A stretch of DNA of 64,000 bases from Glandiceps talaboti (taxonomy: Eukaryota; Hemichordata; Enteropneusta; Spengelidae), in contig NC_135554.1 in the NCBI RefSeq assembly GCF_964340395.1, positions 25,859,592-25,923,591 of the forward strand, written 5' to 3'. Below, piece by piece: positions 6,801 through 9,800 of the stretch (the stretch's first letter is position 1; every line of letters begins with the position of its first letter). The notes under the pieces were generated by a model, which had not been told where the DNA came from, made no database searches, and worked only from the letters and a program-made list of their open reading frames with translations. The position numbers and the translations under genes were made by a program.

Positions 6801-9800
6801 TAACGGTAAGATTTCAGACAATTAGATAATATTCCCAAATATTTTTCTTCCTTCAGCCAAGGAAAATATGAGTGACCTAAGGGGCCTTGTCACTATGAGT
6901 CACTAGACATTTTTTTGTAACTATCATATTAAAATTCTTTATTCTGGAATTATATCACCTTTTATTGACCAAAAATTGTATTTATTACAGGAACTGCAAA
7001 GTTAGTGTTCTTGATATACAACCATATTGGTCAATTCTTGGATGGTATTAATTTTGATGACAACACAACAGATAATGCAACTGGATTGGTGAATACCCGT
7101 GTGATCTCTGCATCTATCAACTCTATGCATTCTCCGACCAAATTAGCTGAACCAGCTATAATTGTATTTCAACATAAGGAAGTAAGTATATCGTATAAAT
7201 CTAGTATTGATTTGTGACATTGTTAGCCTGGAACCCATGTGAATGGGGTTTTGAATTTGTTATTTCCCCATCAATCGGAAATCAAAATTCAAAATCCCCA
7301 ATCGTCTGGATTCTAGGCCACGAAATTGTAGACAATCAACAGTATATATATATACTCAAGAGAAGCGTGAGACTGCGAGATGTTTTTACCCTGAAATTTT
7401 CATCAGGCAAAACATGAAATATGTCAGTGTTAGGTTGTCTGTATGACCAGCTGCATGTAACATATACAATACTTCAGATTCAATGTTGTCCAATATTTCA
7501 TCTCCAAGAACTAGTTTCAAACAAAAATTTCTGAGTTTTCTTGTAGGAAAACTATCAGGGTTTACAGTTGAGTAAAAAGTAAAAGACATTACTGACAACA
7601 AAAGTAATATTATGTTTCAGTCTAAATGCCAATATCATATGTCTATGGTATGTATAGTACTGCTTGAACTCAAACTTTGTAGCAAAACACATAGAATTTT
7701 AGATTCTAGCACTGCCTGTGAAGGAAAAGTTTAAACTTTTTCACTTTTGTAATCTTGAGATGAAGTTCATTATCAATTTTCTTTACAATCAGATAATTAA
7801 TACACATTCTCTGTTTTCCATAATTTCTGTGTGCAAGCTTTTCAGATGGCAAATATTCATAATGTTTTGAAGACCTTTCAATTTTCTGACTTTGTTTTTG
7901 TTTTTGTTTTTTAGAGTGAAAGAACCAACCCTGTATGTTCATATTGGAATTATACTGTCAAGTAAGTAATAAATATTTTATCTTTATTGCCTATAAAATT
8001 GTACATTTACATGTTTTATTGAGAAACTTGATAGAATGCAGTCCATGGATGGGTGAACAACAAATACCAGTGCACATTTTCTTCAAACCTCCAAAGCACA
8101 TAGTTAAGAAAAAGCATTTCCATTGTTTATGACAGCCATATTGCTAAGTTTGTCTTACATATGATGTCTTTTTCTTTATAGTGGTGAAGGTGAATGGTCA
8201 GATTATGGTTGTGAGACAGTAGAAAGCAATGAAACCCACACTGTCTGTGCTTGCAGCCATCTTACTAATTTTGTCTTACATATGATGTCTTTTTCTTTAT
8301 AGTGGTGAAGGTGAATGGTCAGATTATGGTTGTGAGACAGTAGAAAGCAATGAAACCCACACTGTCTGTTCATGCAGCCATCTTACTAATTTTGCTGTAC
8401 TTATGGATGTTCATGGCACAGAGGTACGTCAATTAAATAGTAAAAGCTGTATATCTTCTCACATGATGCAACACAAGTCTAGACAGAACCTAGATGATAG
8501 CAAGGTTGTGATAAAATGCATCTTTCAAGTTTTTAATGGCAGATTGTAACAGAATCCGCTAAGTGAATATGGCAGTAAATGGAATTGTTGGTATTAAGAT
8601 TTGAGTAATCTAGAGTAAATAGATTAATATGTCTAGACTAAGAGACAAAGTTGACAATTTTAAGAACTTACTGTGACATTTTTAAATTAAATATCATGTT
8701 TTAAAAAGGGTAAGAGTAAAAACAGAGAGTGATTGTGTTTCTCATCACAGTATCAAAATGATAGTCACTTAATGAGAAAGCTGCTCTCAAACTTCACATT
8801 TCATGCCTTGAATAAATTTCAGTCGGTGAAATGTTTTTCATGCATGAGCAAAACTCAAGTTTGGTTTAGTTAAAATATAACAAACACACAACATATTGTA
8901 ATTTGTACAAAAGAATGTGTCAAGTTGTCAGTAGAGTGGACAAAGTTGTAATTTTGAGGATCTTTTAAAAATATAAATGTTGTACTTCTAGAATACATTG
9001 CATTCTAAAAAGAAATATATTTCTTGTCCTTTTTAGTGATAATTCTCTTTTTTTTTGAGTTTTATATTTAAGTCATCAAAACCTTACCTTGTTACATCTT
9101 AGTATGTTTGATTTTGGTAAAAACATTTAGTTTTATTAATTTCACATCATTTTATCTTACAGCTGGCTTGGGGTCACCACTTTGCACTGTCAGTGATAAC
9201 CTTTGCAGGTTTCATGATCTCAATCGTCTGTCTTGTTCTGTGTCTTTTGACATTTACATGCCTAAAGTAAGTGAAAACATCTTCATATTCAATTTAATGA
9301 GATGTAATCTCGGAGGATTTATACAGTGTGCGTGTAGTGAATGATAAACTGAGAGAATATTGATTTATGCTAAAAAACCAGAAATTACAGTTGTTATCAG
9401 AGATGGGATTATGTTGATTTTGCTGATTTTACAAAGATGATGACAATTTTGCTACAAAATCAGAAAAGTTAGTAATGTACTGTACATTAGTCTTTTCGGG
9501 GGGGGGGGGGGGTGTTTTTGTGCAATTTTCAGTGTATGAGCTGGTTCTCGAAATAAATCATAATATTATTATAATTTCATAGCTAATTAAATCATTTTGC
9601 GTACTCTTCAAATATGACTGTATTAAAAGTATTTATCTCAATATTTTAAAAGTTCATGCTATGATAAAATGGATAGAGATGTTTACACTTTGCTCATTTA
9701 AACAATTAATTCTTTACCTTATGCTTCACAGACGTAAAATAGGTGTAGAAAGATTTAGCAAACAAAAATTTTTTGTATTTCACAAAATAAACAAATCATT

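What the first reader, a model, noticed from the sequence alone, without database searches (positions are those of the whole stretch)
8130..8423. Fresh 121-bp tandem duplication of the GPS exon in gene A, with a possible soluble-receptor outcome
The acceptor plus the first 92 nt of the GPS exon are repeated with two base differences. Using the first acceptor keeps the GPS through HLTNF and then stops ten residues later, before any membrane helix. That would yield an N-terminal lectin/EGF/GAIN fragment without the 7TM part. Using the second acceptor gives the normal receptor. The upstream acceptor is identical in sequence, so competition is expected.
Basis: partly seen in the sequence, partly recalled or inferred. 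Interest (0 to 1): 0.75.

Follow-up and report, generated by a model that had tools for sequence, protein, structure and literature searches.

The report
Receptor exon duplicated beside its fossil
In an animal cell-surface receptor gene, the short exon for the receptor's self-cleavage site sits next to a decayed older copy of itself, and a further partial copy has since been added; it most likely only wastes some messages, though a secreted receptor cannot be excluded.

Summary
The duplication is real: 8133-8253 and 8254-8374 repeat with period 121; the last 29 intron bases are identical and the 92 exon bases differ at two sites. Acceptor 1 does read through the GPS to a stop nine residues after HLTNF; that stop is the TAG of acceptor 2. 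In the four genes found with this cassette (A; B in the window; one 100 kb away; one on another contig) the intron just before the GPS exon is a decayed copy of that exon, in about the same 121-nt register. The one further receptor intron that could be read and 14 of 14 other gene A introns lack this. Exchange between this fossil and the exon's 3' end would give the new unit and its period. The cassette also looks homogenised between paralogs: A and the 100-kb paralog differ at 1 of 17.3 silent sites there, against 0.74 in nine other exon segments. Most likely the intact second copy makes the receptor, and use of acceptor 1 gives a message expected to be degraded. A soluble receptor is possible but has no evidence here.

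The parts
7915..7961 (+). exon before the GPS exon; donor GTAAGT follows
8133..8181 (+). X1: end of the intron, remnant of the GPS exon's 3' end, ending in acceptor 1
8182..8273 (+). copy 1: first 92 nt of the GPS exon, no exon end and no donor of its own
8254..8302 (+). X2: hybrid of exon-type sequence (first 20 nt) and intron-type sequence (last 29 nt), ending in acceptor 2
8300..8302 (+). in-frame TAG met when acceptor 1 is used; also the last bases of acceptor 2
8303..8423 (+). complete GPS exon (121 nt), donor GTACGT follows; its last 49 nt are X3
9163..9266 (+). next exon, start of the 7TM part
30299..30419 (-). GPS exon of paralog gene B (single copy)
30420..30489 (-). decayed GPS exon copy in gene B's intron, directly before its acceptor

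Best explanation
This is the second round of tandem duplication at one exon. First (inferred from remnants): in an ancestor of four receptor genes the GPS exon was duplicated in a register of about 121 nt; the downstream copy stayed the exon, the upstream copy decayed into the intron and its 3' end now forms the acceptor region. Second (the structure is shown, the exchange inferred): in gene A, exchange between that fossil and the exon's own 3' end, 121 nt apart, added one unit of acceptor plus 92 exon bases. The cassette has also been copied between paralogs by gene conversion (inferred from silent sites). Function (inferred): the complete second copy keeps acceptor, exon and donor, so receptor is made by joining 7961 to 8303; use of the first acceptor gives a premature stop 121 nt before the next junction and probably nonsense-mediated decay, so the added unit is near-neutral.
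For: Hybrid X2 junction and 121 period. Intron/exon resemblance in four of four genes with 0 of 1000 shuffles reaching each score and 0 of 500 in a 400-nt search; in L008 it spans exon positions 14-109. Not seen in L036 (932 of 1000 shuffles reach its score) or in 14 of 14 other gene A introns. Only gene A has the extra unit among the four. Silent sites: A-L006 1 of 17.3 in the GPS against 204.9 of 275.4 in nine other segments; A-L008 6 of 17.3 against 0.68; L006-L008 5 of 17.3 against 0.78; A-B 3 of 17.3 against 0.53. A-L006 identity falls from 90 of 92 to 15 of 29 at the same codons where the duplication junction lies. Stop geometry and lack of a good in-frame donor.
Against: No RNA data, so acceptor use and decay are unseen. 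Gene A's own remnant is the weakest of the four (35 against a shuffle maximum of 31; 44 against 39). The control outside the four genes is a single intron (L036). A-B shows patchy similarity in other exons too (pS 0.11 in E5, 0.20 in E8, 0.23 in E15), so the GPS is not the only similar exon in that pair. Replication slippage or another route could give the same junction.
Confidence: 0.68

Rival explanations
1. The first acceptor is a used alternative site that makes a secreted lectin/EGF/GAIN receptor ending in a changed agonist segment ([12 protein letters not shown] in place of TNFAVLMD).
For: The frame is open to the stop; the truncated motif still matches Pfam GPS at 56.6 bits against a cut-off of 22.5; the last 29 acceptor bases are identical; soluble N-terminal variants from premature stops are common in mouse and human adhesion GPCR transcripts (passages of PMC6667449 and PMC11039983), and fly Cirl makes 7TM-lacking proteins by splicing (passage of PMC13197933).
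Against: Stop 121 nt before the next junction; the unit is in one of four paralogs; the tail residues are read from intron-type sequence; no RNA.
Confidence: 0.12
2. The GPS cassette is alike between paralogs because its DNA is under strong selection, not because of gene conversion.
For: The protein is 90-97% identical over 29 codons among the four genes.
Against: Silent sites differ widely from the next receptor L036 (pS 0.77-0.87 over 25 codons); A and L006 share 27 of 29 intron bases yet only 15 of 29 bases at the exon's end.
Confidence: 0.08
3. Three-exon structure by intron gain: acceptor 1 is used and a donor inside copy 1 joins to acceptor 2, as in the potato RdRp gene.
For: Same kind of duplication over an acceptor (PMC4974935, abstract and section 5 read).
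Against: Of 10 GT sites, the best donor-like one (after 8189, score 2.7) shifts the frame; the two in-frame ones score 0.4 and -9.3 against 2.7-7.9 for the gene's donors (own small table).
Confidence: 0.04
4. Assembly artefact.
For: Short tandem copies can be assembly errors; no reads were available.
Against: Five differences between the units and a hybrid junction; one place in the assembly.
Confidence: 0.03

Closest known systems
Potato RdRp intron gain by tandem duplication (PMC4974935)
   Same: duplication of an intron's 3' end plus the 5' part of the next exon, copying the acceptor signals
   Different: there a new intron is spliced out, shown by RNA reads; here no good in-frame donor lies in copy 1 and no RNA is available
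Intronization of duplicated exon sequence in Drosophila (PMC2891723, passages)
   Same: one copy of a duplicated coding stretch becomes intron
   Different: there a new intron within an exon; here an existing intron's 3' end consists of the decayed copy
Concerted evolution of EMR2 with CD97 and EMR3 (cited in passages of PMC2720389)
   Same: gene conversion among adhesion GPCR paralogs
   Different: here a short cassette with the GPS exon and the intron end before it
Soluble or 7TM-lacking adhesion GPCR splice variants (passages of PMC6667449, PMC11039983, PMC13197933)
   Same: a premature stop before the helices would give a free N-terminal part
   Different: those come from RNA; here only the DNA potential is seen

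Membership tests
Adhesion GPCR | GAIN domain, GPS motif and 7tm_2 | tested here: met
   GAIN 123.2, GPS 61.7, 7tm_2 155.7 bits, all above the curated cut-offs (7tm_2 only to the end of the partial model)
Latrophilin-like receptor | SUEL/rhamnose-binding lectin plus HRM domain | tested here: met
   SUEL lectin 85.8 bits from a query joined by hand just upstream of the window; HRM 26.9 against a cut-off of 26.2; that both lie in one transcript is not shown
Latrophilin-like receptor | olfactomedin domain (in mammalian ADGRL1-3) | not tested
   only part of the gene was modelled; invertebrate latrophilins often lack it and some have EGF (passage of PMC6422961)
Intron gain by tandem duplication | new donor and acceptor that remove the extra copy and keep the frame | tested here: not met
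   no good in-frame donor in copy 1; RNA not available
Gene conversion between paralogs | local drop of silent differences against the rest of the gene | tested here: met
   A-L006 1 of 17.3 against 204.9 of 275.4
Alternatively spliced soluble receptor | transcripts joining 7961 to 8182 and a secreted product | not testable with these tools
   no RNA or protein data on hand

The most novel reading that the evidence does not exclude
The GPS exon with its fossil is a self-renewing recombination cassette: the fossil supplies the acceptor and, by pairing with the exon's end, repeatedly duplicates the exon and moves it between receptor genes. In gene A this has made a switch between a tethered receptor and a secreted GAIN protein that may still cleave itself and carries a replaced agonist segment.
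Probability: 0.1. Interest if true: 0.8.

Novelty: new variant of a known kind. Interest (0 to 1): 0.42.

Why it matters
It appears to catch exon duplication in two stages at one exon: an old copy turned into the intron's acceptor region, and a newer partial copy made from it. It also shows silent-site homogenisation of the self-cleavage exon among otherwise diverged receptors, which would mislead a gene tree built on that exon. If RNA showed the first acceptor in use, it would show how a secreted adhesion receptor isoform can arise.

Tried and rejected
Branch-site argument: the three paralogs' remnants carry CTTACTAA where gene A's X1 reads ATTGCTAAG, which suggested that acceptor 1 had lost its branch site. 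In 39 other intron ends of the four genes (42 tried, 3 dropped for lack of AG) TACTAAY, CTAAY and related motifs were not enriched over shuffles, so I do not use it. The excess of differences in the first 20 nt of X1 (3 of 5; P = 0.03) is weak, and those differences may predate the duplication.

Transfer of the new unit from paralog L006: set aside, because the two gene A copies share three states against L006 (two intron, one exon).

Exon remnants further up the introns: in A and L006 not beyond shuffles. Gene B has a possible one (exon positions 29-69): 1 of 500 shuffles reach it in a 94-nt stretch, 19 of 500 in a 325-nt stretch.

Other GPS exons as controls: 53 GPS matches were listed, 48 of them outside the four genes, but only one further intron (L036) could be read.

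Rows dropped or flawed: the GPS exon's 3' part was read in a wrong frame and is not used (plain identities instead). In one search the E4 segments of L006 and L008 include some probable intron, and E6b of L006 includes intron bases, so divergence there is somewhat inflated; both are in the pooled figures. E9 and E14 were not scored; E15 was scored for A-B only and is not in the pooled figure. B-L006 (GPS pS 0.17) and B-L008 (0.40) were computed but not pooled. The Fisher tests use rounded counts and treat sites as independent.

Literature: searches list no paper whose title or shown abstract reports a GPS exon with its own decayed copy as acceptor (two returned no paper); listed papers were mostly not opened. 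No structure prediction was run. The species was not identified. An earlier count gave two difference sites one base too high; the sites in this report are right.

Full report
WHAT IS THERE. The window lies on contig C7 (25859592-25923591) of an unnamed 590-Mb genome in 47 contigs. Gene A is an adhesion GPCR: 15 exons from 1295 to 11658 form one open frame with AG/GT at every border (the 3' end of the gene was not modelled) and match EGF, HRM, GAIN, GPS and 7tm_2 in Pfam; a SUEL lectin match lies just upstream of the window. Two units of 121 bp stand in tandem, 8133-8253 and 8254-8374, far beyond chance (100 of 101 identical; best of 300 shuffles 48). The GPS exon is 8303-8423, also 121 nt long. 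I call the related blocks X1 (8133-8181, intron, ends in acceptor 1), X2 (8254-8302, ends in acceptor 2) and X3 (8375-8423, the exon's own 3' end). X2 is exon-type in its first 20 nt and intron-type in its last 29.

THE READING FRAMES. Acceptor 2 gives the full receptor. Acceptor 1 gives ...[19 protein letters not shown] and then TAG at 8300-8302, the last bases of acceptor 2. The stop is 121 nt before the next exon junction. By the usual 50-55 nt rule (recalled) such a message is a decay target; whether this species follows it is unknown. Of 10 GT sites in copy 1 and X2 the best donor-like one (after 8189) shifts the frame, and the two in-frame ones score 0.4 and -9.3 against 2.7-7.9 for the gene's 15 donors (own small table).

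THE FOSSIL. A DNA search of the whole genome (a lower bound, by the tool's own statement) found the cassette at three other places: L006 (100 kb away on C7), L007 (gene B, window 30296-30489, minus strand) and L008 (contig C23). Each has one GPS exon copy of full similarity, so among the four the extra unit is particular to A. But in all three, and in A, the intron directly before the exon resembles the exon's 3' end: 0 of 1000 shuffles reached the score in each (weakest in A, 35 against a maximum of 31). In a 400-nt search the match covers exon positions 14-109 in L008 (score 75, shuffle maximum 46), 51-108 in B (81 against 42), 71-108 in L006 (57 against 43) and 65-108 in A (44 against 39), 0 of 500 shuffles each. 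Each alignment lacks one base in GGATGT, and the distances between remnant and exon are 120-122 nt. So an old duplication of much of the exon probably preceded the four genes' present form, or it spread among them by conversion. The next-closest receptor (L036, 58% aa) shows no such remnant (932 of 1000 shuffles reach its score over the intron piece, 836 over the last 100 nt), nor do 14 of 14 other gene A introns before their own exons.

HOW THE NEW UNIT AROSE. Exchange between X1 and X3, set 121 nt apart by the old register, gives exactly one added unit with a hybrid X2. This is inferred from the junction; other routes are not excluded. The two gene A copies share three states against L006 and differ from each other at two sites, so the duplication within A is probably later than the cassette shared with L006.

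GENE CONVERSION. A and L006 differ at 1 of 17.3 silent sites over 29 GPS codons, against 204.9 of 275.4 (0.74) over nine other exon segments (Fisher 1.4e-8 on rounded counts, sites treated as independent). L006-L008: 5 of 17.3 against 0.78. A-L008: 6 of 17.3 against 0.68. A-B: 3 of 17.3 against 0.53, where other exons are also patchily similar (pS 0.11 in E5, 0.20 in E8, 0.23 in E15). Identity of A and L006 is 27 of 29 in the intron end and 90 of 92 in the exon, then 15 of 29 in the exon's last part: the similar tract ends at the HLTNF codons, where the duplication's junction also lies. Silent sites of this motif are otherwise free: A against L036 pS 0.84 over 25 codons. In a 306-kb stretch around the window, five exon queries found A, B and L006 and one weak 14-residue match (E 0.03).

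WHICH ACCEPTOR. Not shown. The last 29 bases are identical, so local sequence does not decide. Only the second makes a receptor. In the inferred earlier round the downstream copy is the one kept as exon in the four genes. I therefore expect acceptor 2 for function, with some use of acceptor 1 lost to decay. A branch-site argument was tried and dropped.

SOLUBLE RECEPTOR. It cannot be excluded. Mouse and human adhesion GPCR transcripts often encode soluble N-terminal variants through premature stops (PMC6667449 and PMC11039983, passages seen), and fly Cirl makes 7TM-lacking proteins by splicing (PMC13197933, passage seen). The truncated motif still matches Pfam GPS at 56.6 bits. Nothing here shows that it is made.

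KNOWN KINDS. Duplication over an acceptor with gain of an intron is known in potato (PMC4974935; abstract and section 5 read); intronization after duplication of coding sequence is proposed in Drosophila (PMC2891723; passages); gene conversion among EMR2, CD97 and EMR3 is cited in PMC2720389 (passages). The combination at a GPS exon was not seen in the listings. I rate it a new variant of known kinds, of moderate interest.

Noticed in passing
window 5004-5068 and 5095-5159: The 3' part of the HRM exon (4926-5078) has a second copy in the intron just after it (59 of the exon's bases at 95%, offset 91). Of 15 gene A exons, only this one and the GPS exon have such a copy in a gene A intron.
   Followed up: partly
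window 27473-34270, minus strand: Paralog gene B: exons matching those of gene A, with strongly patchy similarity (silent difference 0.11 to 0.91 between exon segments), as if several exons had been converted.
   Followed up: partly
L006, end of the GPS exon (G000:C7, about 25766980): The agonist segment after HLTNF is diverged in L006 (FAIIMNV against FAVLMDV in A), although the exon part before it is nearly identical to A.
   Followed up: no
window 21696-23235 and 51678-52662: Two long tandem arrays: period 42 with about 37 copies and period 59 with about 17 copies.
   Followed up: no
window about 3463-3554, 5764-5870 and 11360-11446: Similar dispersed pieces with complementary-looking ends (CTGTAAGATA, TACCTTACAG or the like) in gene A introns, seen by eye; possibly short inverted-repeat elements.
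   Followed up: no
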